Positions 1,654 to 33,336 of a stretch of 64,000 nt of DNA are shown piece by piece. This stretch comes from Collimonas sp. OK242. Lineage in GTDB: Bacteria > Pseudomonadota > Gammaproteobacteria > Burkholderiales > Burkholderiaceae_D. Below the pieces are notes generated by a model, which made no database searches, had not been told where the DNA came from, and worked only from the letters and a program-made list of their open reading frames with translations. The DNA lies in assembly GCF_900107095.1 (NCBI RefSeq), contig NZ_FNOR01000003.1, forward strand, positions 1 to 64,000, written 5' to 3'. Numbering within the stretch: position 1 is the first letter of the stretch; each line of letters starts with the position of its first letter. Both the position numbers and the translations under genes were made by a program.

Positions 1654-3045
1654 ATGGAAATCACCAGAAACGCCCCCGCAACATCCCTGCATATCGATAC
1701 CGAAGCTGCTTCGGAACAGCAAGGCAATGGCGCTGCACGCCGCAGCGGCAGCAGATCGCCAACCCGGGAATCGCTGCCCGGACTTGAGTCGCTTGCCGGT
1801 AGCGGCAAGAAAGCAACGAGCAGCAATGTTTTCAGCAGCAAAGGAAGCAGCGCGCTAGCGGCTCTGACAGTTGAACAGGCTCCCCGCAAGAGCGGCGGCC
1901 ATAAGGGCGAAGCTAGCAATGCCGCTCTTGCAGCGCATCTGAAGAACTCATTCACCCACGCATCGCAGCTCGACGCCAAGATGGATGAAATGGTGGTCAA
2001 GGGTAAATTTACAGTCAAAGAAGCAGATACAGTCAAAGTGAAAGATACACTTGACCTGGTGAAATACGTTAAAGGCCAGGTCCAGACATGGTTGAAAAAA
2101 CCGGGGACCGAAGCTGCGCTCCATACCCAGGCGACCCAGTCTTTCACCCATAAAATCGGCAAAGAAGATTTATTCCCTGGATGCATCCTGGTGCGTAAAG
2201 AAAGCATTCCGGAGTCGAAGGCGCATGCGTTTTCCCTGGGATTGCAAATGGTGCCCAATCTGAATGGCATCGAAGACAACCAAGGCGACGACAATTGTTT
2301 TCACGTCATGATGTGGGCGCACGATCAGAAAAACCCAGTCAAGACAGAGCTGGATGGAAAAGGCGAAGCGGAACAACTGGAAGCGCGCGGCGGACTCGGC
2401 ACCTCGAACACCATGCGGGTGCAGGCGTCCTCGATACAGGATGGCCAATACTGGGTCTACAAGCCTACCGACAAGAATGTCGGCGATTGGGCGGCTCAGG
2501 CGGGTCAAATGTGGCAGGACGTCCCCTACAGCAAAACCATCCTGGGTACTTCGATGAAACCGGGCGACAAATTTACAAAATTTACCGAGGCGGCCCAAAA
2601 GGATATCTTGCAGGTGGCGTCGGATCCCTTCACTCATACTCCGCCGCAGGCGCAAGCGTCGGATGGCAGCCATTTCTTATCCATGACCCCGAAAGAACGT
2701 ACTCCGGGGGAGATCTGCTCCAGCGTTGCCGTACGCTTGTATCAAGCGGCGCACGCCCAGATTGCGCTGGCCAAGCAGGTTGAAAAAAATCAGGAATTGC
2801 CGACGGACGACGAAGCAGAGGCGATGCTGGAAAAAATCGTTTCCGAATTTACGGGATTGATGGCGAACAACGCAGAAGGTGTTTCCCCCAAGAGCGTCGA
2901 GCATTTCTGCAAAGTCGGAAAGACGGCGGAAGGCGAACCGCAATTCAATTTCCTTGGCGTATTGACGGTGGATGCAAAGGACGTCTTATATCCTGAGGCC
3001 AGGTACGACTCTAACAACAACAGAATTCCTCCAGCGTCGCACTAA
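1654..3045 (+). CDS. Candidate type III effector, 463 aa
   Basis: I do not recognise a family, but the setting is that of a secreted effector: a PIP promoter directly upstream and a CesT-like chaperone gene before it. The first ~90 residues are Ser/Gly/Arg-rich and disordered (SGSRSPTRES and GSGKKATSSN), typical of a type III secretion signal and chaperone-binding region. There is no Sec signal or membrane segment. Residues ~90-460 look globular, with conserved-looking stretches such as DNQGDDNCFHVMMWAHDQ (~210-227) and a Trp/Tyr-rich segment QYWVYKP (~270). The Asp-Asn-Cys-His group could be catalytic, but this is a guess. The ATG follows GGAG with a spacing of about eleven bases. Codon use is similar to the neighbours. 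Confidence 0.72.
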   Translation: MEITRNAPATSLHIDTEAASEQQGNGAARRSGSRSPTRESLPGLESLAGSGKKATSSNVFSSKGSSALAALTVEQAPRKSGGHKGEASNAALAAHLKNSFTHASQLDAKMDEMVVKGKFTVKEADTVKVKDTLDLVKYVKGQVQTWLKKPGTEAALHTQATQSFTHKIGKEDLFPGCILVRKESIPESKAHAFSLGLQMVPNLNGIEDNQGDDNCFHVMMWAHDQKNPVKTELDGKGEAEQLEARGGLGTSNTMRVQASSIQDGQYWVYKPTDKNVGDWAAQAGQMWQDVPYSKTILGTSMKPGDKFTKFTEAAQKDILQVASDPFTHTPPQAQASDGSHFLSMTPKERTPGEICSSVAVRLYQAAHAQIALAKQVEKNQELPTDDEAEAMLEKIVSEFTGLMANNAEGVSPKSVEHFCKVGKTAEGEPQFNFLGVLTVDAKDVLYPEARYDSNNNRIPPASH

Positions 3046-9972: not shown

Positions 9973-10830
9973 ATGGGCGCTTGCATTTCCAGAATTTCAG
10001 CAGCGCATCAGATGGGCGATGACAGAATTTCGTCGCACGAACAAGTCGAGCGACGGGCGACGACGACCCGCGGCACGATTCGGCAAGCCAGTGTGCCGAA
10101 CGGACTTCCCCCGGGCAGGAGCCTCGCTGAGCGGACTAAAGCTGCCGCAACCATCCAGGCGCACTGGCGTGGAGGGCAGCAGCGAGACCTCAATGCGAGC
10201 GAGGCACAGGGCCACGCGCCTTATCGGAACGAGACGCACTATAAAATGGCCACCAATGGCTATTCGGGTGAGGCGCTGCATGCGGATGGTCCGCATGGCC
10301 CGCGCGGCAACAACGGATGGCTGGCCTACGCCTGGGCACATACAGCTCCGCGAAATTCATTGGCGCTGCTTCACAGCTTCCAGAGAAAGGATAAGCTGGC
10401 TGAGGCGAAGCAGACCCTCTACAACGGTGTGGAACCGGACGGTGTGATCTATGCCCCGAACGGGACTCACGACATGCGCGTCAACTCGGCATGGATACTG
10501 GGATTGGCCCATAACGAGACGCCTGCCGTGATGACGGCCGAACTGGACGATGTGACCGTCGTGCGCAGCCGCGCCCGCAACCATGCGCCTGTAGAGGAGC
10601 AGACGACGGACTCGAATCTTTCGGCTCTGGCTCGGGAGGTCGTCGGAATGACGCAGAGCGGGCATTTCCGCGTCGGCGAGCCTCTGCACGAAATGCAAGT
10701 GCTCGTTCCCAATCCCAGCGCAGCCAAGGCCACGTTGAACGATTTCAAGACACCTTTCGGTATGCCGCAAGACGAATTGAAGAAAAAGCTTGACGATGCA
10801 GGCCTAAACACCAGCGGCCTGAGCGGCTGA
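9973..10830 (+). CDS. Candidate type III effector with acylation motif and IQ calmodulin-binding motif
   Basis: 285 residues, PIP promoter upstream and a strong AGGAG site. The protein begins MGACIS: Gly2 and Ser6 fit the eukaryotic N-myristoylation consensus and Cys4 could be palmitoylated, as in membrane-targeted effectors of plant pathogens. Residues 61-71, IQAHWRGGQQR, match the IQ calmodulin-binding consensus (IQxxxRGxxxR) exactly. Residues ~80-280 form a globular domain I do not recognise, with NNGWLAYAWAHTAPRNS and VNSAWILGLAHNETPAVM as its most distinctive stretches. No Sec signal is present. After the stop codon another frame continues with protein-like sequence to 10958, so the C-terminus may be frameshifted. 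The likely role is in the host cell at a membrane, activated by calmodulin; this is inference. Confidence 0.75.
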   Translation: MGACISRISAAHQMGDDRISSHEQVERRATTTRGTIRQASVPNGLPPGRSLAERTKAAATIQAHWRGGQQRDLNASEAQGHAPYRNETHYKMATNGYSGEALHADGPHGPRGNNGWLAYAWAHTAPRNSLALLHSFQRKDKLAEAKQTLYNGVEPDGVIYAPNGTHDMRVNSAWILGLAHNETPAVMTAELDDVTVVRSRARNHAPVEEQTTDSNLSALAREVVGMTQSGHFRVGEPLHEMQVLVPNPSAAKATLNDFKTPFGMPQDELKKKLDDAGLNTSGLSG

Positions 10831-11028: not shown

Positions 11029-12864
11029 CTACGCTGCCGGTCCCCGATTATCCTCCGGTATGTCGATCACGTGATACTCCGCTCCTGCTGCCGTAGGCGG
11101 ATTGGATTGATGAATCATGTTGCCAACCCTGTTCGCTGCCTCACCAGCTTTATCAATCGCGGTATCAGCCAGAACATCGGTCATTGTCCATGCCGCGAAT
11201 ACCGGTGCGCTGGTGATCGTTCCGACCGTTTCCTGGATGGCAGAGATGCCGGCTGGATCCATTCCCGCCTTTTTCGCTGCGATTCCGGCCACGGCTTTTG
11301 CTGCCGACACCCCGGCAAAACCGCCGGCCAGCACACCGTTCGTCAAGATACGCTTGGCAGTCAATAGTTCGCGCGCGCCGCTGAGCGTGTCGGTCGCGAT
11401 ATCCACTGGCAATCTGGCGGCGCGCTTCAATCCATTGATGCCGGCATCGGTCCATGTGGTATTTTCCAGTCTGTCGAAAAGCTCTTCCCAGTCGGGACGG
11501 CCGAGCAGATATTCAGGGCCGACACGGTGATTCCGCTCATTGAACGCATTCATGGCGGCATATGCAGCCGCGCCGGCGACGGGACCTCCAGCAGCCGCGA
11601 TCCAGGAGTCAACCTCAGTTGCCACAGCCGCGCCGGCTTTCTTGGCAACCGCTGGAACGACAGCATTTCGCAGGATGTTGCGTCCGGTATAGGTCTGAAA
11701 CGAGATCGAAATTTCGAGAGCTTGCTTCATCAGATCGCCTGTTGCCCCTTTTGCTTCAGCCATCACCGGCTCCAGCTGTTCCGTGTCCGCTTTCATCCAT
11801 TGGGTATTGCCGGTCGATTTCTCCAGGATTTTTGCGCCCACGGTATCTGCTGCGCCAGAAAACACACCGGCAATTGCGCCGCCTTGCGCCGGGGTCTTTG
11901 CGGCTGCAGTCAATACCTGCTTGGCGTCCAGCAATCTTGATGCAATCCCGAACGGGACTGATCTCACGTAACCAACGACAACTAGCGCAATGCGATCCAT
12001 GTTGGTTCCCTTGGACAGGATCTGATGGATAGTTTCAGGCGTTTTGCCCTTTTCATCGAGTCTGTTTGCTCTCTCGTTGATCAGCAATGCAAAGGCTTCA
12101 TGGTTGCGTTCATTAATATGCGGCGCAAATATTTCTTGCAGCAGCAGTGAGATCGCATCCCTGTTCGAAATCTGGATTACCACCTCTCCCAGCCGAATGT
12201 TTTCAGCATCCAAAGGTGCAGTTGGTTCCGCCTCGCCTGCAAGCATGTCTCTCATTTCGATTTCGATATGGGACGCCCCGGCCATTGCCGAGCTTTCCGC
12301 GGTGGAAGAAAGAGGTGTCTTCGCAGTTGAGGACGAACCAAAAAAATGTTTTCCGGAGAAAATGGTGGATAGCTTTTTGCGGCTAGCGGCAGTTTTCGGA
12401 ATCAGCGGCTGCGGAGAACCTTCCGCAATTGGAGAGCCCGCGATTCGGGAATGCGCCAACTGCTCGTCGGAAGTTATTTTTTTTCCCTTGCCTGAGAGGA
12501 CCTCGATATTCAATTCACCGCTGTGACGCGGTGTCAACGAACCAGCGGTGGCCCGCCCGCTCCCGCTCCTGCTTGAGGATGCTGAAAATCGCCTGCCGCT
12601 GTCCGTGCGTCCCTCAAATCCAATACTGGAAGATACTGATATTCTGGTGCTGTCCACTCTTCCTTCATGGCCTATGCTGGAGGACACCGAATGCCGGTTA
12701 CTACCGGCATTCGGCTCTGCAAGCCGGGTTAGATCGCCTGAGCTCGCCATCGGGCTGCGCGATCTCGACCTTCGGCTGGAACCGCTTGTACTCGTTTCAA
12801 CATTCTGGGTAGTCTCGGTGCCTTCGGACGCAAGCGTGGGCTGGGACAGGCTTTGTATATGCAT
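11029..12864 (-). CDS. Candidate type III effector, 611 aa, Ser/Arg-rich N-terminus and Gly/Ala-rich helices
   Basis: 611 residues with GGAGC before the ATG and a PIP promoter upstream. The first ~200 residues are disordered and Ser/Arg-rich (GSSRRSRSRSP), with an internal tandem repeat of ~17 residues: SVSSSIGHEGRVDS, then SVSSSIGFEGRTDS, then a decayed third copy. Residues ~225-320 are a helical domain. Residues ~390-600 hold several Gly/Ala-rich hydrophobic stretches (GGPVAGAAAYAAMNAF, NGVLAGGFAGVSAAKAVAG) that may insert into a membrane. No family recognised. The stretch VDIATDTLSGARELL and the following Gly/Ala helix resemble the region DISTDITKARSDL of the effector at 16113, so the two may be distant paralogues. 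Confidence 0.7.
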   Translation of the reverse strand: MHIQSLSQPTLASEGTETTQNVETSTSGSSRRSRSRSPMASSGDLTRLAEPNAGSNRHSVSSSIGHEGRVDSTRISVSSSIGFEGRTDSGRRFSASSSRSGSGRATAGSLTPRHSGELNIEVLSGKGKKITSDEQLAHSRIAGSPIAEGSPQPLIPKTAASRKKLSTIFSGKHFFGSSSTAKTPLSSTAESSAMAGASHIEIEMRDMLAGEAEPTAPLDAENIRLGEVVIQISNRDAISLLLQEIFAPHINERNHEAFALLINERANRLDEKGKTPETIHQILSKGTNMDRIALVVVGYVRSVPFGIASRLLDAKQVLTAAAKTPAQGGAIAGVFSGAADTVGAKILEKSTGNTQWMKADTEQLEPVMAEAKGATGDLMKQALEISISFQTYTGRNILRNAVVPAVAKKAGAAVATEVDSWIAAAGGPVAGAAAYAAMNAFNERNHRVGPEYLLGRPDWEELFDRLENTTWTDAGINGLKRAARLPVDIATDTLSGARELLTAKRILTNGVLAGGFAGVSAAKAVAGIAAKKAGMDPAGISAIQETVGTITSAPVFAAWTMTDVLADTAIDKAGEAANRVGNMIHQSNPPTAAGAEYHVIDIPEDNRGPAA

Positions 12865-13269: not shown

Positions 13270-15477
13270 ATGCAGAGCGGAAAAATCAGTGGTCATCACG
13301 TCCCCATATCGTCGGAACCGGCTATCGCTACACGGGAAGAGACCGGCACCAATGTCGGCGAGCGCTCAGGCGCACGAGACCGGGAACGCGCAGGGTCGTC
13401 GGCGGCGGCACTGGGAGAGTTAGCACGCCTGCCGGCGCGCCAGGCGCAGACGCGGCCGGCATCCTCAGGACGATCGAGGCGCACCGCGTCGCTTCCGCAG
13501 GCTCCGGCGGGTAATGCATTGACCGTCGAGGACCACGAAAAAGCGGTGAAGACTGCGCTGAAATATGGCGACACCTGGCAGGCGCTGGTGAATGGATCTA
13601 TGACGCATATGCTGCAGCGATTGAAGCTCGCTGAAGCGGGTATCAAGTCCGCCGGGGCCGGCCTGGAAGGACTGAAGGGACTGAAAGGGAAAATCGCTGA
13701 TGACCAATACGAAGAAATAAAAGGCGTCTTTCACGTGCGTCGCGCTCAGTCGGCCGAGTACGGCGTCAATACAAGCTCGGATCAGGTTGCTCAGTGGTCT
13801 TGGCAAGGAGCGCAACGCGCCCAAGGGTCTTCATCTCACGGTGGAGAGGAACTGATCGAAACGCAGGAAGAGCTGACCGCCATGGAGCGGGCGCTCAACG
13901 AGTTGCAGGGCTTTCGCGAGGTGGTTATGAAGCATGGCGGCATCCTGCACGAATTCGTTCGTCAGTGTGAACAGTCCAAGCCACATGAGAATATGTTGAA
14001 GCAACTGTCTGCAGTCAAATCTGGCGGGGCCGCGGCCAAGAAGGCGCTGCTGGCAATCGCCGGTCACGCGGTTACGGTCAACGTCGATCGCCTGGTCATG
14101 CTTTGCCTGCGCTCCGGCGGCGCGCAGTATTTCCATCTCATGCAGCGCGTGGTGGAACTCCTGGACGCCATATCCAATCGGCGCAGCGATACCGAGCAGG
14201 CGATAAGAACCCTTGAACGAGGTGACGAACTCAATCCAGGGCAGCGGAGCGAGTACCAGGCACTCGCCGCCGCATATGCCGACCAGCTTAACGCGGTAGG
14301 AGAGCTTTTTTGCCTGGACGCCGCCAGCATGCTGGAAATGAATGACGACTCCGGGATCTGGCAATATTCGCTGGAAATGGCCCATGCCATTTCCGCGTAT
14401 CAAGCGTGCTTGCGCGAGGTATGCGAGCCGCACCGCGGTGACACTCCTGCCACAGCATTGCCGCAAGCTCCGTCCGAAAGTTCGGCGAGTTTGGCGGCGA
14501 ATATGCCAGCATGGCCGACTGCGGCGAGTGCTCCCGCCCGATCGAACAAGGCGGCATCCGGCAAGGCCAGGAAGTCGCACGGACGCGGCAAGCAACTGCT
14601 GAAGCAAGCCGCTGCCCGTCCGCCAGCCGTCGCGGCATCGGTGTCTCATGCCCAAGCCAATACTGCCGTATCGGCGCCGCCTGCTGAAATTCCTGCGGAG
14701 TCTCCGGCATTGGAGCCGCGCGATGGTCTCCAAGGGATGATCGAGCGGACCTTGCGAAGGTGTCCGATCGACCTTGATGTTGCGATGAGCTTGGGTGGCG
14801 ATGTCGTCGCCATTGCCCAATCGATAAAGAAGAACACGGGAGGCATTGACGCGCTGAACGGTCCGAGGGACGATCCAATGGATGCAGCTGACTTGGTCCG
14901 TTCGTCAGCGCAAAACTGGTTTGGCGACATCGCCCGTCTGCGCGCAACGAGCGACGAGGCACGCAAGTCTCCGGCTGTCGATAAGGCCACCGTCGAATTG
15001 CTCGGGAGCCGCTTGCAGGCGCTGGAATTGATCCATCAGGGCATGGACACTCGGGAAGGGGATGCGCTCAAGCGCCACAAATTTCCCAAGGGAAAACACG
15101 TGAGCCGCTTGCTGCAATTGGGCGAGATTGAAAGCGTACGCCCCCCGCTTCAATTGCCGTCGGATAAAGATACGCTCTACGAAATACGCATCCAGCCCAA
15201 ACCGTTGTCTAGCAGCGAACGGGCGGCGCCAGTGTTCCTGCACTTGCATAGCGACAAATACGTCAGTGGCAAGGAGATATTGAAGCTGCCGCTCCGTGCG
15301 TTCACGGCAGCGCATCTGAAGACGGATGAACAAAAGAACCTGGGGCAGAAACACGTAGCAATGTGGCGCGCATTGCATAGATACGACAAAAATACCCATA
15401 AAGACGACGAAAAGATCCATCGCGGTTATGTCACTTCGGCGTTGCTTGACCAGCTGCGGAGCTGGGTTCATGCCTAG
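13270..15477 (+). CDS. Candidate type III effector, 735 aa
   Basis: 735 residues with no family I recognise. The first ~80 residues are Arg/Ser/Ala-rich and disordered, without a Sec signal. Residues ~80-370 are mainly helical and contain heptad-like runs, consistent with coiled coils. Residues ~380-460 are a low-complexity Ala/Pro/Ser linker (APARSNKAASGKARKSHGRG) that could hold a nuclear-type basic patch. Residues ~470-735 are a second globular domain ending in LLDQLRSWVHA. Its PIP box points to coexpression with the secretion system. The ribosome site is weak and the exact start is uncertain; ATG 13270 lies ~75 bp after the expected transcription start. Confidence 0.68.
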   Translation: MQSGKISGHHVPISSEPAIATREETGTNVGERSGARDRERAGSSAAALGELARLPARQAQTRPASSGRSRRTASLPQAPAGNALTVEDHEKAVKTALKYGDTWQALVNGSMTHMLQRLKLAEAGIKSAGAGLEGLKGLKGKIADDQYEEIKGVFHVRRAQSAEYGVNTSSDQVAQWSWQGAQRAQGSSSHGGEELIETQEELTAMERALNELQGFREVVMKHGGILHEFVRQCEQSKPHENMLKQLSAVKSGGAAAKKALLAIAGHAVTVNVDRLVMLCLRSGGAQYFHLMQRVVELLDAISNRRSDTEQAIRTLERGDELNPGQRSEYQALAAAYADQLNAVGELFCLDAASMLEMNDDSGIWQYSLEMAHAISAYQACLREVCEPHRGDTPATALPQAPSESSASLAANMPAWPTAASAPARSNKAASGKARKSHGRGKQLLKQAAARPPAVAASVSHAQANTAVSAPPAEIPAESPALEPRDGLQGMIERTLRRCPIDLDVAMSLGGDVVAIAQSIKKNTGGIDALNGPRDDPMDAADLVRSSAQNWFGDIARLRATSDEARKSPAVDKATVELLGSRLQALELIHQGMDTREGDALKRHKFPKGKHVSRLLQLGEIESVRPPLQLPSDKDTLYEIRIQPKPLSSSERAAPVFLHLHSDKYVSGKEILKLPLRAFTAAHLKTDEQKNLGQKHVAMWRALHRYDKNTHKDDEKIHRGYVTSALLDQLRSWVHA

Positions 15478-16112: not shown

Positions 16113-17489
16113 ATGCATAAAAAAGTAACAGACTCAGTCCGATCATATTCAATGCCCCACATATCTCAGGAGGAAGCCACCTCCAGTCGAGAACAGACGC
16201 CCCAGTCTAGCCGGCAGAAGTCTCGGCAGAGCACCGATTTCCTGCGCAGCAACCTGCCGCCGGCTCCTCGCCTCAAGGAACGAAGCGATGAAGGCGAAAC
16301 CAGCCGGCTCTTCGGAGGCAGGTCGTCGGCTCCTGTCTCGGCTCGGTTCGATTCGGCACGCCTCAGTAGCGTGCTAGGCCGCTCGCCCCTCGATCAGCAT
16401 CAGTCGAGGTCAGAGATCGGCACCCCGGAATCTTCCCACGCCAGCACCAGCAGCACAACCGACCTGGAGTCTGGCGTCGTCGGACATCCCGCAGTCGAAC
16501 ATCAGACGGGGGCAGCCCCAGCTGCGGCCGCGGACGGCTCGGATCTTTCCGCGTCCGAAAAACTCAATGCCGGACTCTCGTCGGTCATGCAGCAATTCCT
16601 CGTCAGCGGCGCGAGTTGGGGTATTTCCCGCAAGCTGTTCGAGGAATTCGTTCCGGCAATCGGACAACTGATCGGCGGCAAGACCAGTGCCACCGCAGGT
16701 GCCGCCTACGGGCAGATTGCCGGTGCGGCGCTGGGCAACCTGCTTGGTGGCGTCGCACTGGGCGCCACACACTACATGACCGAGCATGGCGTGAAAAAGA
16801 TCAGGCTCGCCATCGGCAAAGGCAGCGAATATGCGCCCAAGGTCTCCGGCGAAGCGATGAAACAAGCCATTTTCATCGCCACGTTCACTACCTTCATGGC
16901 TTGCAAAAGCATGGCAAGATCATCCCTTCCCAAGCAAAAAAACGGAGAAGAGGACGCCGCGCTTGCCTATGCATTGGACATCGCATTTTCAGCGTTCGGC
17001 GGCGCCGCCGCAGAGGGCATCACGCAGTCGCTAGCCAAGGGCTTCGGCAAGATCTCGGCGAATTGGTCATGGGACGAGCTCAAATCACGGGTGATCGGAG
17101 GAACTGCAGCCGGAGCGGCGAGCGCCATGGGAGACATCAGCACAGACATCACCAAGGCAAGGAGCGATCTTCCCGGCAGCTCGCTCGCCGCAGCCGGCCT
17201 GGGCGGCGCGATGAACAGCGTCATGGCGCTGGGATCCTGGTTCCTGGTCCGAAAAGTGATGAACGATCATTACGCGGCCCGAACCTCGCACAGCACTGTG
17301 GCATCTGGCGCCACCCAGCCGGAGCCGGGTCGGAACGCAGAAGCAGAGGCGGCGCCGATCAATCCACATGCAGTTTCGCCGGAAGAAATAATGCAATTGG
17401 AACAATTCATCAACAGCAGCGCTCCTCTCACGACTGTCAGCGAATCGATGGTGGCCGTCCAGATGGCGGAACAGCTCGCCCGGGAATAA
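16113..17489 (+). CDS. Candidate type III effector, 458 aa, Gly/Ala-rich membrane-like helices
   Basis: 458 residues, strong GAGGAG site, PIP promoter upstream. Residues 1-150 are Ser/Arg/Pro-rich and disordered (secretion signal and chaperone site in such proteins). Residues ~160-380 contain Gly/Ala-rich hydrophobic helices: GAAYGQIAGAALGNLLGGVALGA, a segment around FIATFTTFMACKSM, and AAGLGGAMNSVMALGSWFLV. These alternate with amphipathic parts, as in pore-forming or organelle-targeted effectors. The C-terminal ~80 residues are polar. No known family recognised; it may be a distant paralogue of the 611-aa protein. It could alternatively be a translocon component, although no translocator chaperone is nearby. 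Confidence 0.7.
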   Translation: MHKKVTDSVRSYSMPHISQEEATSSREQTPQSSRQKSRQSTDFLRSNLPPAPRLKERSDEGETSRLFGGRSSAPVSARFDSARLSSVLGRSPLDQHQSRSEIGTPESSHASTSSTTDLESGVVGHPAVEHQTGAAPAAAADGSDLSASEKLNAGLSSVMQQFLVSGASWGISRKLFEEFVPAIGQLIGGKTSATAGAAYGQIAGAALGNLLGGVALGATHYMTEHGVKKIRLAIGKGSEYAPKVSGEAMKQAIFIATFTTFMACKSMARSSLPKQKNGEEDAALAYALDIAFSAFGGAAAEGITQSLAKGFGKISANWSWDELKSRVIGGTAAGAASAMGDISTDITKARSDLPGSSLAAAGLGGAMNSVMALGSWFLVRKVMNDHYAARTSHSTVASGATQPEPGRNAEAEAAPINPHAVSPEEIMQLEQFINSSAPLTTVSESMVAVQMAEQLARE

Positions 17490-20478: not shown

Positions 20479-21093
20479 CTAGCTTGTGTTTCTGTGCGGT
20501 TCACTTGGAATAATCACAGCCATCTCTATCAATCGATAAAAATAGAAACGTATTTTTTCCACGTCTTCGTTCAGTAGCTCAGCCAACTCTGAGGCGCTGG
20601 CGCCAACCACTAGCTGCTGAACAGTGCGATCCAAAAATCGCTGCAACACATAATTATCCATCGCATAGTCATTCCGATTTAAGCTAAAGCAGGTGTCGGC
20701 ACGCGGCAGCAATTTTTTCATGCCGCGATGGTGAAAAACAGAAAGCAGCGGCTTTTGAAATGGCTTTTCTTCGGGGTAGGAAATATGGCTTGTGTTACCC
20801 AGATCCTTTAGATCCAGATGAAAATCTCTGCGTAGTGGCATGGCATCCACCGGCAGATAGCGAAACGTCCCGGTAAAGGAGAGGATCAGCCTGGCCACCA
20901 CAGCTTTGGCCTGCTCAAGATCACTGGTATTGTCCGCATTTATTTGTAACGCGGTTAATACCTGTTCTGAAACGTGCAAGTAATATCGATTGCCATCACC
21001 GATATCGATGTGAATCACGCCAGAACGGTACTCTCCCACGCTAGTAAGTACAGCATGCAACGAAAAATCCGACAGTCGACCCCAGATTGCCAT
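20479..21093 (-). CDS. Hypothetical protein, possible DUF4388/PATAN-like domain
   Basis: 204 residues from ATG 21093, which follows GGAG by five bases; a GTG two codons upstream is less likely. The first half (GRLSDFSLHAVLTSVGEYRSGVIHI, then YYLHVSEQVLTAL) has the pattern of DUF4388/PATAN domains: a loss-of-function-like strand pair followed by a helix. Such domains occur in bacterial GTPase and gliding-type signalling systems. The second half is helical and polar (residues ~150-200) and resembles a small winged helix (ASELAELLNEDVEKIRFYFYRLIEM). The protein could therefore couple to the GTPase/roadblock operon at 28-31.7 kb, but that link is inference and the domain call is tentative. Confidence 0.55.
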   Translation of the reverse strand: MAIWGRLSDFSLHAVLTSVGEYRSGVIHIDIGDGNRYYLHVSEQVLTALQINADNTSDLEQAKAVVARLILSFTGTFRYLPVDAMPLRRDFHLDLKDLGNTSHISYPEEKPFQKPLLSVFHHRGMKKLLPRADTCFSLNRNDYAMDNYVLQRFLDRTVQQLVVGASASELAELLNEDVEKIRFYFYRLIEMAVIIPSEPHRNTS

Positions 21094-21284
21094 CCACACT
21101 CCGAAAATAGAAAAACATACAGACGCAACAGGCCCGGAGATAAATTTTGCTTTGAATCTTTGTCACATGCCAACGATTGAATCCACAGGGGAAACATCAA
21201 TTTTTTCCGAGATTGATATCTGTGGCCGAGCCGGATTCGGGTATCGGGCATGTGGCGGGTTTTGCCAGAGGAACACCGTCCAGT

Positions 21285-28167: not shown

Positions 28168-28572
28168 TTATTCAACAGCCTGCAAATGCATAGCGCCAAG
28201 ATCGGTCGCGGTTGAACGTGTATCGAGAATCAGTTTTCCCAGGTTTGTGGAAGAATTCGCCGCTACCATCAGAACGCCAACCATGCCCGCTCGGATCAGC
28301 AGTACTGGCCCGTGCTCTCCATCGAGAATGATCTGGCGGAGTTGTCCTCGACCAACTTCCTTTGCCGCCTGAGTCGACAGCGCAAGCAGCGACGCACACA
28401 TCGCACTAAATCGATCTCCGTTAACACCTTCAGCAAAAAAAGATGCTATCAGCAGGCCATCAAACGATATCAATGCACACGACCGCACTTCAGGAGACAC
28501 TGCCTGAAGATTGCGCAAATGCGTGCGCGCTGTTTTTTTTATCATATCTAATGATGCATTTTTTGTATTCAT
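28168..28572 (-). CDS. Roadblock/LC7 domain protein (MglB-like)
   Basis: 134 residues from ATG 28572; an in-frame GTG at 28614 has no ribosome site. The core fits the roadblock/LC7 fold: LRNLQAVSPEVRSCALISFDGLLIASF, MCASLLALSTQAAKEVGRGQLRQIILDGEHGPVLLIRAG. Such proteins form homodimers that act as GAPs or effectors for Ras-like GTPases (MglB for MglA). It ends the five-gene minus-strand operon that encodes a GTPase two genes upstream, so it is the likely GTPase partner. Confidence 0.8.
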   Translation of the reverse strand: MNTKNASLDMIKKTARTHLRNLQAVSPEVRSCALISFDGLLIASFFAEGVNGDRFSAMCASLLALSTQAAKEVGRGQLRQIILDGEHGPVLLIRAGMVGVLMVAANSSTNLGKLILDTRSTATDLGAMHLQAVE

Positions 28573-28657
28573 GTCATGACATTGCAAATGACCATAAAAT
28601 GCTTTCCATCTCACAGAAGAGGAATTTGAAAAAATTCCTCTTCGTATTGAAAGATGC

Positions 28658-29062
28658 TTATAGCGACATTTCGATTTCTGGCATGGACATGCGCGCTTTG
28701 GTCAGTACCATGCCAAGATTCGCTCCTTTGCGGCATACGAAGCAAGCGACCTGTTCTTGCTTCTTTCCACGCAAGAAGACATGAATCAGATTTTCACTAT
28801 TGACAATGACTTCCTGGAAATAATGCTGCCCATCTTCGGCGACGCCGCGTGCGGAACGAAACAATTTCTCAATGGCTTGGACATTTGGCCCCTGAAACAG
28901 ATCGGCAGTTGCTGCTGCAAGCAGCTCAACGACAGAGTTCGGATGCGAATCGACGGATTTGATGCCCAACAACATTCCCGACGAAAGATCGACATAACCG
29001 GCAGCGACGCATTCTGGAATGGAGGTGATGGCTTTTTGCAGCATGTTGTCTAAATTACTCAC
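28658..29062 (-). CDS. Second roadblock-like protein (DUF2173-type)
   Basis: 134 residues with a roadblock-like layout: MLQKAITSIPECVAAGYVDLSSGMLLGIK, then a central helix containing VVELLAAATADLFQG and a strand pair around LIHVFLRGKKQEQVACFVCRKGANLG. I assign it to the DUF2173/roadblock-related group with moderate certainty. It sits 13 bp downstream of the ABC-phosphatase gene and ~85 bp upstream of the other roadblock gene, in the same operon. Two roadblock proteins with one GTPase suggest a heterodimeric regulator. Confidence 0.68.
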   Translation of the reverse strand: MSNLDNMLQKAITSIPECVAAGYVDLSSGMLLGIKSVDSHPNSVVELLAAATADLFQGPNVQAIEKLFRSARGVAEDGQHYFQEVIVNSENLIHVFLRGKKQEQVACFVCRKGANLGMVLTKARMSMPEIEMSL

Positions 29063-29075
29063 AGCGAAAGATCCT

Positions 29076-30467
29076 TTAAAAATGGCTGGTTTGAAGTGCT
29101 AAATCCCGTGACGGGGAGTATGAAAACGGATCATATGAGGCGGACGTTTGCGGTCTTTCATTTGCGACGATCAACGCAAATTTTTCTAAAAATTCCAACT
29201 GGCGGTCGGATTGAACCCATCCTGACTCAATGCGCCTGACAAACTCGAGCGCTTGCAACGCATTGATGTTTCCTTTACCGGCCCAGATCCAGTAAGCGGC
29301 CAGGACCGTTCCGGTGCGTCCCAAGCCGGCCAGGCAGTGTATTGCGACAGTCTGAGAGCGGCTAATCAATTCATCGATCATGCGGCACAGGGAGACGGCT
29401 TGCGCTACTGTCGGCGGAGCCATATCGGGAATGGGACTGGAGAGCCAATTAATACCAAATTCACCGGCCAGTGCAGTATCAACCGCATTTTCGGTCAGAG
29501 AGACGAGATGGGTAACGCCTACCGCTTTGACGGCATCAAAATCATAACGAATGTCATGAATCAGGCCCGGACGCGGCATTCCTCCCAGGCGATCCGGCAA
29601 CAGCCATCTGAAACCATTTGGGCCGCAGGCGGAACTGATTCTTCTTGTGAGAGCGGTAGCACTACTTGTTACTACTCGCCGCTCACTGAGATGAGCAGCA
29701 ATAAAATTATCAGAGTGCGCGCCTTCGGGGCAAGAGCCTGTCCGTAAGAACGCTTTGGCAGATAAACTCGATGGATTCGAAAAAAATTTCCCCGATTCCG
29801 CTTGCTCTTGAATAACCCGATTGGCTAGGAGTACGATTTGTTCGCCAAGACGCCGTGCTTGCAAAAGGTTATGCAGAACAACCAGCACGGAGCGTTCTTC
29901 GCGAATCCGTTCGATAAGCGTCAGGATGGACTCTGCCTGAATCGGATCAAGATCGGCCGTAGGCTCATCGATCATTACAAGCGCCGGATTGGAGATTGTC
30001 ATCCGCAGGATCCCGATCATGCGCTGGGTTTCAACGTTGAGCTCGATCATCTTCTGCGGCAACACGTCCTGTAGACGTGATAGCCCGTAACGTGCGAGTA
30101 CGTCCATAAGCAATTCGATCTGCAGACTCTTTGTCAAAGACGAGCGGTTGGGTAATGCAGAGACCAAATTTTCCAGGACATTGGAAATTAACAGCGTCGA
30201 CTTTTGCATCAACAGGACGGGACGATTATGCGACGTCATTGGTATCCCGTCGTATAGCGCGGTCCCCCATGTACGCAGCGCCGGATTACTGTCATTGAAT
30301 CCCGCCAGGGTGCGCAACAAGGTCGATTTTCCCGTTCCAGACGGTCCAAGCAACACCGTGCAGCCTTTTGCCGGCAGAGATAAATCTACCGAATGCAATA
30401 TCACCCGATCGGCAAAGGCAACGCCAAATTTTTGCAAACTCAACGTGTGCGGCAATGCAAAATTCAT
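29076..30467 (-). CDS. ABC-type ATPase fused to a dual-specificity protein phosphatase
   Basis: 463 residues with two domains. Residues ~8-225 are an ABC ATPase: Walker A GPSGTGKST (41-49), Q-loop Gln88, Walker B ALVMIDEP (162-169) and H-loop His199. The signature LSGGQ is replaced by a sequence around LNVETQR (143-149), so normal ABC dimer hydrolysis is doubtful. Residues ~280-440 are a cysteine phosphatase: general acid candidate Asp348 in SPIPDMAPP and the P-loop HCLAGLGRT with Cys378 and Arg384. No transmembrane partner gene adjoins, so it is not an importer. The start overlaps the GTPase stop by four bases, and the downstream gene begins 13 bp on. It may dephosphorylate a protein or lipid in the GTPase circuit. 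Confidence 0.85.
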   Translation of the reverse strand: MNFALPHTLSLQKFGVAFADRVILHSVDLSLPAKGCTVLLGPSGTGKSTLLRTLAGFNDSNPALRTWGTALYDGIPMTSHNRPVLLMQKSTLLISNVLENLVSALPNRSSLTKSLQIELLMDVLARYGLSRLQDVLPQKMIELNVETQRMIGILRMTISNPALVMIDEPTADLDPIQAESILTLIERIREERSVLVVLHNLLQARRLGEQIVLLANRVIQEQAESGKFFSNPSSLSAKAFLRTGSCPEGAHSDNFIAAHLSERRVVTSSATALTRRISSACGPNGFRWLLPDRLGGMPRPGLIHDIRYDFDAVKAVGVTHLVSLTENAVDTALAGEFGINWLSSPIPDMAPPTVAQAVSLCRMIDELISRSQTVAIHCLAGLGRTGTVLAAYWIWAGKGNINALQALEFVRRIESGWVQSDRQLEFLEKFALIVANERPQTSASYDPFSYSPSRDLALQTSHF

Positions 30468-31033
30468 ACGTCGACACCGCTAGGAAACCGCTCACTCATA
30501 TCCACCATGGCGGTCAGCGCGAGCAATAAAGTTCTTACGTTTTGGGGGTTGCGCGCATCAATCGTCAATATTGGAAGGCCTCCCATATCGTATAAACCGG
30601 ATCGGTTCTTGATCTGCTCCCGGTAAAGATCGATTGATGAATCCGACGCCACATCGGTGTGCGTCACGCCAACGACCATTGGCCGCCGCTTTCCCCCGCG
30701 GCGATCCAGCTGGTCCAGATAATGTGACAAGTCCGCGGCCGGATCGCTGCGACTGTGGTCAATGAGCAAGACGACTCCCTTCGATTGCTGCAAAAGGATA
30801 TCCCACATGAAATCAAACCGGTCTTGCCCAGGTGCGCCATACAACAATATTCGGTCGCCTTCGCCGAGTTGCATTATCCCCATGTCCATAGCCACGGTCG
30901 TATGACTCTTGTACAGTGCGACCTCGTCGGTAGCTTTGGCTTCTGTAGCGACGACTTCAATGTCGCTCATCAAGCGAATCGCCTGGGTTTTACCAGCCCC
31001 TGCCGGTCCTAAAAAAAGTATGCTCCATTCCAC
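30464..31033 (-). CDS. Ras/MglA-like small GTPase (CvnD/ATP-GTP-binding family)
   Basis: 189 residues. G1 is GPAGAGKT (9-16), G3 is YGAPGQDRF (65-73; the usual DxxG reads GAPGQ) and G4 is THTD (124-127) instead of NKxD. The GAPGQDRF...MWDIL stretch is typical of bacterial MglA/CvnD-like GTPases. Such switches control polarity, motility or secretion in concert with roadblock proteins. The gene follows the unknown gene at 31670 by 13 bp and overlaps the ABC-phosphatase gene by four bases. Nucleotide specificity could be unusual given the changed G4. Confidence 0.84.
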   Translation of the reverse strand: MEWSILFLGPAGAGKTQAIRLMSDIEVVATEAKATDEVALYKSHTTVAMDMGIMQLGEGDRILLYGAPGQDRFDFMWDILLQQSKGVVLLIDHSRSDPAADLSHYLDQLDRRGGKRRPMVVGVTHTDVASDSSIDLYREQIKNRSGLYDMGGLPILTIDARNPQNVRTLLLALTAMVDMSERFPSGVDV

Positions 31034-31046
31034 CGTGATGTTCCTC

Positions 31047-31670
31047 TCAGGACCTGAACAATCGCTGCCACAATTTTCCGATCAACGAAATCGGGTGCTG
31101 CGCACTTGCCATATCTGGCGGCGATGCGCAGATGAGTTCTTTGGTAAGGTCATTTTTCTCAGGCACACCATATGCGACCAGCCTGACATGACCAAATTGC
31201 TGCAATACCTTCAATATCGCCCTCGTCTGCACGGGAGAGGCGTCAAGCACTTTGGGGACAAGATAGACCAAGGTCGGTTTGCGCCACAGCAAGGCACAAA
31301 CACGTGTTACCGGCGCAATCAAGTCTTCCGGGAGGTTGATCAAATCGGGCCATGACGCAAGCTTAATCAGGTCATTCGATTCAACGGTGTCAGAGGGGGA
31401 ATGACAGGCATTCTGAAACGCGATTTTCCACAGTAATTTGTTGACAGGCAAAGCCCCTTCCGGAACCTCATCGCATTCCATGGCCGAAACTACGACAGCT
31501 ATGCGCTCTCGAAAATTGATGGCTTGCCAGTCTTGAATATTCGTTATGTAACGCTGCTGCTTGGGATACACGGAGATATCGCCGCAACCATCTATGCAGA
31601 TTTGCATTGGCATAGTTGAGATCAGAACATCTTTGAGGGAATTGCATAAGGAAAGATGCAGATTGGGCAT
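31047..31670 (-). CDS. Unknown protein, first gene of the GTPase/roadblock operon
   Basis: 207 residues with no family I recognise. It is soluble, alternating hydrophobic strands and helices (TRVCALLWRKPTLVYLVPKVL, VQTRAILKVLQQFGHVRLVAYGV), and has no signal peptide. The first ATG is used; a Met at residue 20 is possible. It is tightly coupled to the GTPase gene (13 bp), so it is a probable subunit or regulator of that system. Confidence 0.6.
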   Translation of the reverse strand: MPNLHLSLCNSLKDVLISTMPMQICIDGCGDISVYPKQQRYITNIQDWQAINFRERIAVVVSAMECDEVPEGALPVNKLLWKIAFQNACHSPSDTVESNDLIKLASWPDLINLPEDLIAPVTRVCALLWRKPTLVYLVPKVLDASPVQTRAILKVLQQFGHVRLVAYGVPEKNDLTKELICASPPDMASAQHPISLIGKLWQRLFRS

Positions 31671-32126: not shown

Positions 32127-32621
32127 ATGAAAAAAATAATACTTCTTTCGCTTACAGCTATTACTTTCTCTCTGACCGGGTGTGCCTCAGGTCCGCTGAG
32201 TTCTCAGGCTGCCTCTACGGTTTCACAAGTCGAAATCTGCAAGGCAACCAATGAACAAGAGATTTCTTCGCTGTTCGACCGCTGGAATAATTCACTTCGA
32301 ACAGGTGATCCACACAAGGTTGTCGCCAACTATGCCGAAAGATCCATTCTTCTTCCCACTGTGTCGAACAAGCCACGAATAACGGCAGCGGAGAAAGAAG
32401 ATTATTTTCATCACTTCCTTACCAACAAGCCTGTCGGAAGAATCAACTTTAGCTTTATCGAGATTGACTGCACCACAGCGGTCGACTCCGGTCTATATAC
32501 CTTCACGTTTTCCGAGACAGGGGATCAAGTCAAAGCTCGCTACACGTTCACTTATAAGTGGGATGGAAAGCAGTGGCTGATTACGAGCCACCACTCGTCC
32601 GCTATGCCGGAAAAAATGTGA
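32127..32621 (+). CDS. SgcJ/EcaC-type (SnoaL/CaMKII-association-like) lipoprotein
   Basis: 164 residues. The N-terminus is a lipoprotein signal with lipobox LTGC (Cys19). The rest, from EISSLFDRWNNSLRTGDPHKVVANYAERSILLP to WLITSHHSS, has the pattern of the SnoaL-like cone fold found in SgcJ/EcaC and CaMKII-association domain proteins. It would sit on a membrane facing the periplasm. Its ligand and role are unknown; the fold often binds small hydrophobic molecules. Confidence 0.75.
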   Translation: MKKIILLSLTAITFSLTGCASGPLSSQAASTVSQVEICKATNEQEISSLFDRWNNSLRTGDPHKVVANYAERSILLPTVSNKPRITAAEKEDYFHHFLTNKPVGRINFSFIEIDCTTAVDSGLYTFTFSETGDQVKARYTFTYKWDGKQWLITSHHSSAMPEKM

Positions 32622-32691: not shown

Positions 32692-33309
32692 ATGCAATTA
32701 AGGATAATTCATGTCTCTCCGAGAATGTATCGAGCGCATTCTTTCCGGCTGGCGAATTATTTCGAATTTGCATTTATGACCGGTATGCGCCCCGAAGAAC
32801 TGATCGCGTTGCGCTGGGGTGACGTCGACCTGGTCGACAGAGCTATCGCCGTACTTCACGCGCAAAAAGCCTTCACTTATATGAAGTCGGCAGAGATCTT
32901 TGAGAATCCAGTTACCGTAAAACCGTGGCATGACGAGCGCAGCCAACGGGACCATTATTGGAAACCGACATTGAAGAGTTTGGGGAGTCGTGCGCACAGG
33001 ACATATCAAACCCGCCACGCTTACGCGACAACAGCATTGATGGCCGGCGTGAACCCGACATACATCAGCCTCCAGCTGGGGCATGCAAATGCAAAAATGC
33101 CATTTACGGTGTATGCGAAGTGGATTGATTCCGCGGACGCGGCAGGGAGAAAGCAAAAATGGAAGCCGTACTGCGCTTCCATTCCACTGATATTCACTTA
33201 CAAACAAATTCGAATTTGCCCCGAATTTGTCCCAGCACCCCCGCAAACGTCGAGAATACTGGTAGGCACGATTGGACTCGAACCAACGACCCCTACCATG
33301 TCAAGGTAG
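32692..33309 (+). pseudogene. Truncated tyrosine integrase beside tRNA-Val
   Basis: Resembles the C-terminal catalytic part of a phage/island integrase: GMRPEELIALRWGDVDL, then YQTRHAYATTALMAGVNPTYISLQLGHANAK and the Tyr nucleophile in VYAKWID. The N-terminal Arm- and core-binding domains are missing, and parts of the catalytic core seem to be lost, since the first Arg box and the HxxR box lie close together. The frame runs into the tRNA gene. It is the remains of the integrase that placed the island at this tRNA; activity is unlikely. Confidence 0.8.
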
Positions 33310-33336
33310 TGCTCTAACCAGCTGAGCTACGCGCCT
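33260..33336 (-). tRNA. tRNA-Val (GAC)
   Basis: On the minus strand the sequence folds into a complete cloverleaf with a 7-bp acceptor stem, D-loop AGCTGGTTAGA, T-arm GGTTCGAGTCC and encoded CCA. The anticodon loop TTGACAT gives GAC, so valine. The 3' end points to the integrase remnant, as expected for an island attachment site. Confidence 0.95.

What the first reader, a model, noticed from the sequence alone, without database searches (positions are those of the whole stretch)
28168..31670. Compact operon: unknown protein, Ras-like GTPase, ABC ATPase-phosphatase fusion, two roadblock proteins
Seen: five genes on one strand with small gaps or overlaps. Known: small GTPases and roadblock partners form switches in polarity and in actinobacterial conservons (Cvn), and MglA/MglB in Myxococcus. 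Adding a phosphatase fused to an ABC ATPase without a transporter is not something I know from these systems. Inference: an unusual signalling module, perhaps joining GTP switching to reversible phosphorylation.
Basis: partly seen in the sequence, partly recalled or inferred. Interest (0 to 1): 0.85.

Follow-up and report, generated by a model that had tools for sequence, protein, structure and literature searches.

The report
Roadblock GTPase switch with built-in phosphatase
A conserved bacterial gene cassette puts a Ras-like on/off switch beside a phosphatase fused to an ATP-binding module, which suggests that these bacteria tie a G-protein switch to protein phosphorylation; the parts are real and recur in other genomes, but the function is untested.

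Summary
Five intact genes (31670-28168, minus strand) encode a winged-helix-type protein, a Ras-like GTPase, an ABC-ATPase/dual-specificity-phosphatase fusion (ABC-PTP) and two roadblock proteins; Pfam misses the first roadblock (P0004), but its model matches MglB. The core is a Group 3 MglA system (Wuichet 2014). New here: (1) ABC-PTP recurs with the first four genes in order in 13 of 14 loci found through its phosphatase domain (all five in 8); (2) P0004's family (RB4) is its partner: 8 of 8 strong-RB4 genomes among 369 carry ABC-PTP beside it; (3) in one planctomycete-phylum genome RB4 is fused to a protein kinase and, separately, to the phosphatase; (4) a divergent globin with a Cys4 tail lies beside the operon in 12 of 21 ABC-PTP genomes, against 1 of 23 other Group 3-like genomes. 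Most likely a switch joining GTP state to dephosphorylation, with haem/redox input in relatives. The window copy is reduced (no receiver domain, no globin), the only one among 245 sampled genomes of its family, near tRNA-Val and an integrase remnant. All biochemistry is inference. New variant of a known kind.

The parts
31047..31670 (-). P0001, 207 aa, short form of the receiver-like/winged-helix protein (family C2) of Group 3 MglA systems; lacks the receiver-like N-domain
   Evidence: Aligns with the C-terminal part of longer relatives at 13-24% identity; 10 relatives are long, L051, L052 and L054 are short, 193-240 aa; no Pfam hit; long relative L058 modelled
30464..31033 (-). P0002, 189 aa, MglA-type Ras-like GTPase with Group 3 features
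   Evidence: Pfam; 35-47% identical to 12 relatives; P-loop Gly/Lys, TT and PGQ invariant; G4 without Lys and G5 DAR in the window
29076..30467 (-). P0003, 463 aa, ABC ATPase (about 1-245) fused to dual-specificity/PTP phosphatase (about 283-430)
   Evidence: Pfam; Walker A, Q, Walker B, H, HCX5R and general-acid Asp kept in 13 of 13 (general acid assigned by me); LSGGQ lost in 13 of 13
28658..29062 (-). P0004, 134 aa, RB4 roadblock protein, the most conserved part (60-71% identity to 11 relatives)
28168..28614 (-). P0005, 148 aa (134 from ATG at 28572), MglB-like roadblock (RB5), probable GAP partner
   Evidence: Robl_LC7; DG pair invariant in 9 of 9; PDB relatives incl. CvnB5 and MglB
33260..33336 (-). 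tRNA-Val(gac) near the operon
32692..33240 (+). remnant of a phage-type integrase; end approximate, the open frame runs on into the tRNA to 33309
   Evidence: PF00589 7.9e-13; ORF; sequence

Best explanation
It is a Group 3 MglA-type G-protein operon carrying an extra, co-inherited output or feedback unit: a phosphatase with an ATP-binding half (ABC-PTP) and its roadblock scaffold (RB4). Proposed working: P0002 cycles between GTP and GDP; P0005 (MglB-like) is its GAP; RB4 (P0004) dimerises with itself or P0005 and brings the phosphatase P0003 to the switch or to a phosphoprotein client; the ABC half binds ATP and gates the phosphatase rather than driving transport; P0001 passes the result to DNA or to a partner. 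In relatives a receiver-like domain and a haem globin with ferredoxin-reductase parts would add phospho-relay and O2/NO/redox input. SHOWN by sequence: genes, domains, catalytic residues kept, conserved order, RB4/ABC-PTP pairing, kinase-RB4 and PTP-RB4 fusions, globin linkage in relatives. INFERRED: every activity, interaction and signal.
For: C2-GTPase-ABC-PTP-RB4 order in 13 of 14 loci. Search by RB4: 24 of 369 class genomes, bimodal; the 8 strong ones (203-256 bits) all have ABC-PTP beside RB4, as has G133 from the phylum sample. Group 3 features: G4 without Lys, G5 DAR, C2 protein, two roadblock genes. Genome G1020: two RB4-kinase gene pairs, a separate ABC gene, a PTP::RB4 fusion (RB4 part 1.5e-37) and a kinase::RB4 fusion (4e-41). 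LSGGQ lost in 13 of 13 while Walker A/B and the PTP site are kept. Globin within 10 kb in 12 of 21 ABC-PTP genomes against 1 of 23 others; the 4 of 369 class genomes with the globin-Cys4 form at 195 bits or more (next best 85) are all among the 8 with ABC-PTP.
Against: No activity or binding tested. The window copy lacks the globin, the receiver domain and any kinase in the operon; its GTPase is on a long branch. ABC-PTP with RB4 occurs without a recognised GTPase gene nearby in G093, G133, G463, L061 and L149, so GTPase coupling is not obligatory. RB5 was not found after RB4 in L055, L056, L059. The 18 ABC-PTP GTPases were not recovered as one clade (4 changes); for 17 of them one clade is not rejected, p-AU 0.218. 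RB4 relatives on Ruegeria plasmids sit among dynamin genes and a kinase gene, with no ABC or phosphatase gene named in the two stretches opened.
Confidence: 0.5

Rival explanations
1. The phosphatase half acts on a small molecule (nucleotide, inositol phosphate, lipid) rather than a phosphoprotein, so the module is a metabolic switch.
For: DSP/PTP folds can take non-protein substrates (established knowledge); weak PTPlike_phytase and PTP-NADK matches.
Against: RB4 is fused or adjacent to protein kinases in relatives, which favours phosphoproteins.
Confidence: 0.2
2. An ordinary Group 3 MglA system; the ABC-PTP/RB4 pair is an add-on with an unrelated job.
For: ABC-PTP+RB4 stand without the GTPase set in G093, G133, G463, L061; Group 3-like loci without ABC-PTP exist.
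Against: Same position after the GTPase gene in 13 of 14 loci and in the window, with a 4-nt overlap here.
Confidence: 0.15
3. A transport ATPase (phosphate or phosphonate type) regulated by its own phosphatase domain and working with a permease elsewhere.
For: Best NCBIfam match PstB 6.9e-33, 114 bits, far below its 343-bit cut-off; PhnD-like protein in some sister loci.
Against: The operon genes include no permease (flanks were not searched for one); LSGGQ lost in 13 of 13.
Confidence: 0.08
4. In this genome the operon is an island relic without function.
For: 1 of 245 sampled family genomes; tRNA-Val and integrase remnant nearby; long branch; shortened first protein.
Against: All five frames open, catalytic residues kept; the short first protein also occurs in L051, L052, L054.
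Confidence: 0.1

Closest known systems
Group 3 MglA systems (Wuichet & Sogaard-Andersen 2014, PMC4316618; passages seen)
   Same: Almost only in beta/gamma-proteobacteria; receiver-like + winged-helix protein, MglA homologue, one or two MglB homologues; G4 often lacking Lys, G5 DAR
   Different: ABC-PTP inserted between GTPase and roadblock genes; RB4 as one roadblock; first protein short here; 'phosphatase' occurs 0 times in the paper's main text and the passages seen on Group 3 name no ABC protein
Actinobacterial conservon (Cvn, Group 2)
   Same: Ras-like GTPase with roadblock partner; P0005's profile matches the CvnB5 structure 3leq, 9e-13
   Different: No histidine kinase and no DUF742 protein among the five genes; compare the Streptomyces plasmid locus
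MglA/MglB with RomR/RomX/RomY of Myxococcus (PMC9481161; start of abstract and passages seen)
   Same: GTPase plus roadblock GAP; the GAP can be a complex of two proteins
   Different: Group 1 there; no phosphatase in the passages seen
HGbRL globin-Roadblock fusion of Methylacidiphilum (PMC4476040; passages seen)
   Same: Globin linked to a roadblock domain as putative sensor
   Different: A fusion with another globin; here a separate divergent globin with Cys4 tail, only in relatives

Membership tests
Group 3 MglA system | MglA-type small GTPase with G4 lacking Lys and G5 DAR | tested here: met
   Window reads THTD and DAR; D159 and R161 invariant in 13 of 13, the residue between them varies in relatives (definition)
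Group 3 MglA system | Neighbouring protein with receiver-like N-part and winged-helix C-part | tested here: inconclusive
   C-terminal part present at low identity, receiver-like part absent in the window; 10 relatives have the long form; fold read only from predicted secondary structure
Group 3 MglA system | One or two MglB homologues nearby | tested here: met
   P0005 by Pfam and DG pair; P0004 by predicted fold
Group 3 MglA system | Falls in the Group 3 clade of the MglA tree | tested here: inconclusive
   My tree held Group 3-like sequences and one CvnD only, the window row on a long branch; the published set was not used
Conservon (Cvn) | CvnA histidine kinase + CvnC DUF742 | tested here: not met
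   Neither among the five proteins
ABC transporter NBD | LSGGQ signature | tested here: not met
   LNVET in the window, lost in 13 of 13
ABC transporter NBD | Walker A, Q-loop, Walker B, H-loop | tested here: met
   13 of 13
DSP/PTP phosphatase | HCX5R and general-acid Asp | tested here: met
   13 of 13; the general acid is my assignment of an invariant Asp
DSP/PTP phosphatase | Phosphatase activity | not testable with these tools
   needs an assay
Roadblock/LC7 | Roadblock fold (P0004) | tested here: met
   predicted model only; no sequence match
MglB GAP | Stimulates GTP hydrolysis by its GTPase | not testable with these tools
   needs an assay

The most novel reading that the evidence does not exclude
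RB4 defines an unrecognised class of roadblock scaffold that couples GTPases (MglA-type, perhaps dynamins) to protein kinases and to an ATP-gated DSP phosphatase: a bacterial G-protein/kinase/phosphatase module with haem-globin input.
Probability: 0.35. Interest if true: 0.87.

Novelty: new variant of a known kind. Interest (0 to 1): 0.7.

Why it matters
Group 3 MglA systems were described by sequence in 2014; I met no experiment on them in the passages I read, and what they signal to is open. This variant ties such a switch to a defined enzyme (a phosphatase), to a scaffold domain found fused to a kinase, and in relatives to a globin, so both output and input become testable with a few purified proteins. 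It also shows an ABC ATPase fold apparently reused for signalling.

Tried and rejected
Not supported: anti-phage defence. PADLOC gives nothing for P0001, P0002, P0004, P0005 and P0006; P0003 has weak ATPase matches (mad3 3.8e-13 at best), and the kinase part of P0007 matches PD-T4-6 kinase models strongly (2.2e-84), which I take as general kinase similarity but which does not exclude a defence role for that planctomycete-phylum kinase. Rejected: conservon membership. A single gain of ABC-PTP is not shown: 4 changes against a shuffled mean of 15.7, 0 of 500 shuffles as low; the clade test was on 17 rows with L099 left out after I had seen the tree; duplicates L019 and L094 were left out of the tree, and 11 loci gave no usable GTPase row. 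Led nowhere: plasmid search with P0002 gave matches under 60% identity only; promoter scan 3 sites against 5.3 expected, terminator scan 9 against 4.8; no repeat of the tRNA end that would mark the island's far side. Paper searches that returned none: 15, 54, 58, 145, and 123 (a PDB code). Searches returned lists; of these I opened passages of PMC4316618, PMC4476040 and PMC9481161 only. A fold search of the C2 model was not run.

Corrections to my own counts: G133, a control, later proved to carry ABC-PTP+RB4 on another contig. G499, not in that control set, has a plain C2-GTPase-roadblock-RB4' set with a globin-like protein 1.7 kb away. With both put right: 12 of 21 ABC-PTP genomes against 1 of 23 others, Fisher 1.6e-4; first count 12 of 20 against 0 of 23, 8e-6. 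Near means within 10 kb of the GTPase or RB4 gene, judged by eye from coordinates; the next closest control, G058, has one 17 kb away. L060 and L062 are cut by contig ends and counted as without. The window's own genome is not among the 21. These p values ignore relatedness.
Full report
WHAT IS THERE. On the minus strand, 31670 to 28168, five intact frames follow each other with gaps of 13, -4, 13 and 43 nt. Pfam sees a Ras-like GTPase (P0002), an ABC ATPase joined to a dual-specificity phosphatase (P0003) and a Robl_LC7 protein (P0005); P0001 and P0004 have no accepted match. P0004 is a roadblock protein by predicted structure: pLDDT 84, pTM 0.79, the 50 Foldseek matches shown being roadblock proteins or complexes by their titles. 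Profile comparison with P0005's family gave 79% over 50 columns; the PDB sequence search found no roadblock.

IT RECURS. A scan of genome contigs (84,980 species genomes) with the phosphatase domain used two peptide patterns only, so many relatives may be missed. It gave 14 loci, by their titles Thiobacillus, Thiohalophilus, Chromatiales, other beta/gamma- or unnamed Proteobacteria and one Planctomycetales. In 13 of 14 the order C2 (first gene) - GTPase - ABC-PTP - RB4 (P0004 family) is kept (in L060 RB4 is cut by the contig end); the Planctomycetales locus L061 has ABC-PTP and RB4 only. The second roadblock (RB5, P0005 family) follows in 8 of 14 (in L064 after a globin gene), was not found in L055, L056, L059 and L061, and cannot be judged in L060 and L062. 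In the reverse direction, RB4 searched in 369 genomes of the class hit 24, in two groups: 8 strong (203-256 bits) and 16 weak (best hit 23-73 bits). All 8 strong ones, the window's genome included, have ABC-PTP next to RB4; 5 have the C2-GTPase part as well, one (G663) a rearranged set, two (G093, G463) only the pair. I opened 13 weak RB4' loci (12 of the 16 weak genomes and a second locus of G658): 9 of 13 are C2-GTPase-roadblock-RB4' sets, 4 show RB4' alone, and none shows ABC-PTP. RB4 is the most conserved part (60-71% identity to the window's; ABC-PTP 39-45%; GTPase 35-47%).

WHAT THE CORE IS. Wuichet and Sogaard-Andersen described Group 3 MglA systems, almost only in beta/gamma-proteobacteria: a protein with receiver-like and winged-helix ends, an MglA homologue and one or two MglB homologues, with a G4 that often lacks the usual Lys and a DAR G5 motif (passages). 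P0002 has THTD and DAR and the PGQ of G3; P0005 has the DG pair reported for Groups 2-5. P0001 corresponds to the C-terminal part of the first protein; short forms also occur in L051, L052, L054, so it is a shared reduced form rather than a private break. The model of the long relative L058 shows a receiver-like alternation, a middle with strands and a helical C-part (pTM 0.56, my reading of the secondary structure; no fold search done).

THE ADDED PART. P0003 keeps Walker A, Q-loop, Walker B, H-loop, HCX5R and an Asp that I take for the general acid in 13 of 13, but the ABC signature LSGGQ is gone in 13 of 13 (LNVET in the window). That argues against an ordinary transport cycle and for an ATP-binding regulatory half (inference). 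Best NCBIfam match is PstB at 114 bits, cut-off 343.

RB4 TIES TO PHOSPHORYLATION. Among 246 genomes of the planctomycete phylum 4 have RB4 hits, one of them partial. In G1020 an RB4 gene precedes a protein kinase gene, the ABC domain is a separate gene, the phosphatase is fused to an RB4 domain (P0006), a second RB4-kinase pair follows, and elsewhere a kinase is fused to RB4 (P0007). Fusion and splitting of the same parts suggest that they work together. On Ruegeria plasmids an RB4 relative (39-42% identity) lies among dynamin genes, with a protein kinase gene further on (2 of 5 records opened).

A GLOBIN IS LINKED. Beside many of these operons lies a divergent truncated globin with a conserved His pair and a Cys4 tail, in several loci fused to ferredoxin or ferredoxin and FAD/NAD domains, plus in 6 of 14 loci a CxxCxxCC protein (Pfam run on 3 of the globin proteins and 1 of the CxxCxxCC proteins). 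A globin lies near in 12 of 21 ABC-PTP genomes and in 1 of 23 other genomes with Group 3-like loci (Fisher 1.6e-4, relatedness ignored). The one exception, G499, has a plain Group 3-like set with a globin-like protein 1.7 kb away: it weakens the tie to ABC-PTP but widens the tie to Group 3. Of 369 class genomes 4 have the globin-Cys4 form at 195 bits or more (next best 85) and all 4 are among the 8 ABC-PTP genomes (9e-8, relatedness ignored); in G663 the gene is on another contig. In G1033 of the planctomycete phylum a PF00042 globin follows RB4 and a Bac_globin protein of the Cys4 family lies near (this genome is outside the count above). Two Thermus plasmids carry the same proteins, with a protoglobin after GTPase and roadblock, and a globin-roadblock fusion is published (passages). 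Against: the window's genome has no such globin near the operon; its only truncated-globin match is a separate gene on another contig, and L054, G658 and G463 have none.

HOW THE WINDOW COPY GOT THERE. RB4 occurs in 1 of 245 sampled genomes of the family, the window's own. The operon lies about 1.6 kb from tRNA-Val, with an integrase remnant between. I found no repeat that marks the other end. Horizontal arrival is likely, not proven. The genome has a second GTPase-roadblock set with no ABC-PTP fusion beside it (L141; the ABC-PTP model's weak match there is the GTPase's own P-loop frame); the same-genus genome G007 also has a P0002 match of similar strength.

NOVELTY. The literature searches found no paper describing the combination (none returned; lists seen: 29, 30, 55, 80, 125, three papers opened in passages). 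Most subscription papers and bioRxiv are not covered. The core is known by sequence; the phosphatase/RB4 unit, its kinase fusion and the globin link I did not find described. Hence: new variant of a known kind, interest 0.7.

Noticed in passing
window 32692-33336: Integrase remnant running into tRNA-Val near the operon; the other island border was not found.
   Followed up: partly
window 20479-21099 (-): 206-aa protein with no accepted Pfam match (DUF2218 at 0.042); by eye it resembles DUF4388/PATAN proteins that accompany some MglA systems.
   Followed up: partly
window 1654-3045, 9973-10830, 11029-12864, 13270-15477, 16113-17489: Proteins with Ser/Arg-rich N-termini that look by eye like secreted effector-type proteins; not tested.
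   Followed up: no
window 32127-32621 (+): Small lipoprotein-like protein with a CaMKII_AD match (1.9e-15), divergent from the operon.
   Followed up: partly
L034, L037, L039, L041, L042: A PhnD-like phosphonate-binding protein lies beside Group 3-like GTPase/roadblock genes in 5 of 20 fetched loci (one cluster; Pfam checked in L037 only).
   Followed up: partly
L100, L102, L104, L105, L108, L109, L110, L111: A metallophosphoesterase-type gene lies beside the weak RB4' genes in 8 of 13 loci (one cluster; Pfam checked in L100 only).
   Followed up: partly
L101:3262-4077: PP2C phosphatase gene beside two tandem weak RB4' genes, another phosphatase-roadblock neighbourhood.
   Followed up: no
L152, L153 (Ruegeria plasmids): RB4 relative among four dynamin-family genes with a protein kinase gene further on.
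   Followed up: partly
L113, L116 (Thermus plasmids): DUF4388 - GTPase - roadblock - protoglobin gene string, followed by an EAL gene in L116.
   Followed up: partly
L165:4938-10050 (G499): Plain C2-GTPase-roadblock-RB4' set with a 304-aa globin-like protein 1.7 kb further, convergent.
   Followed up: partly
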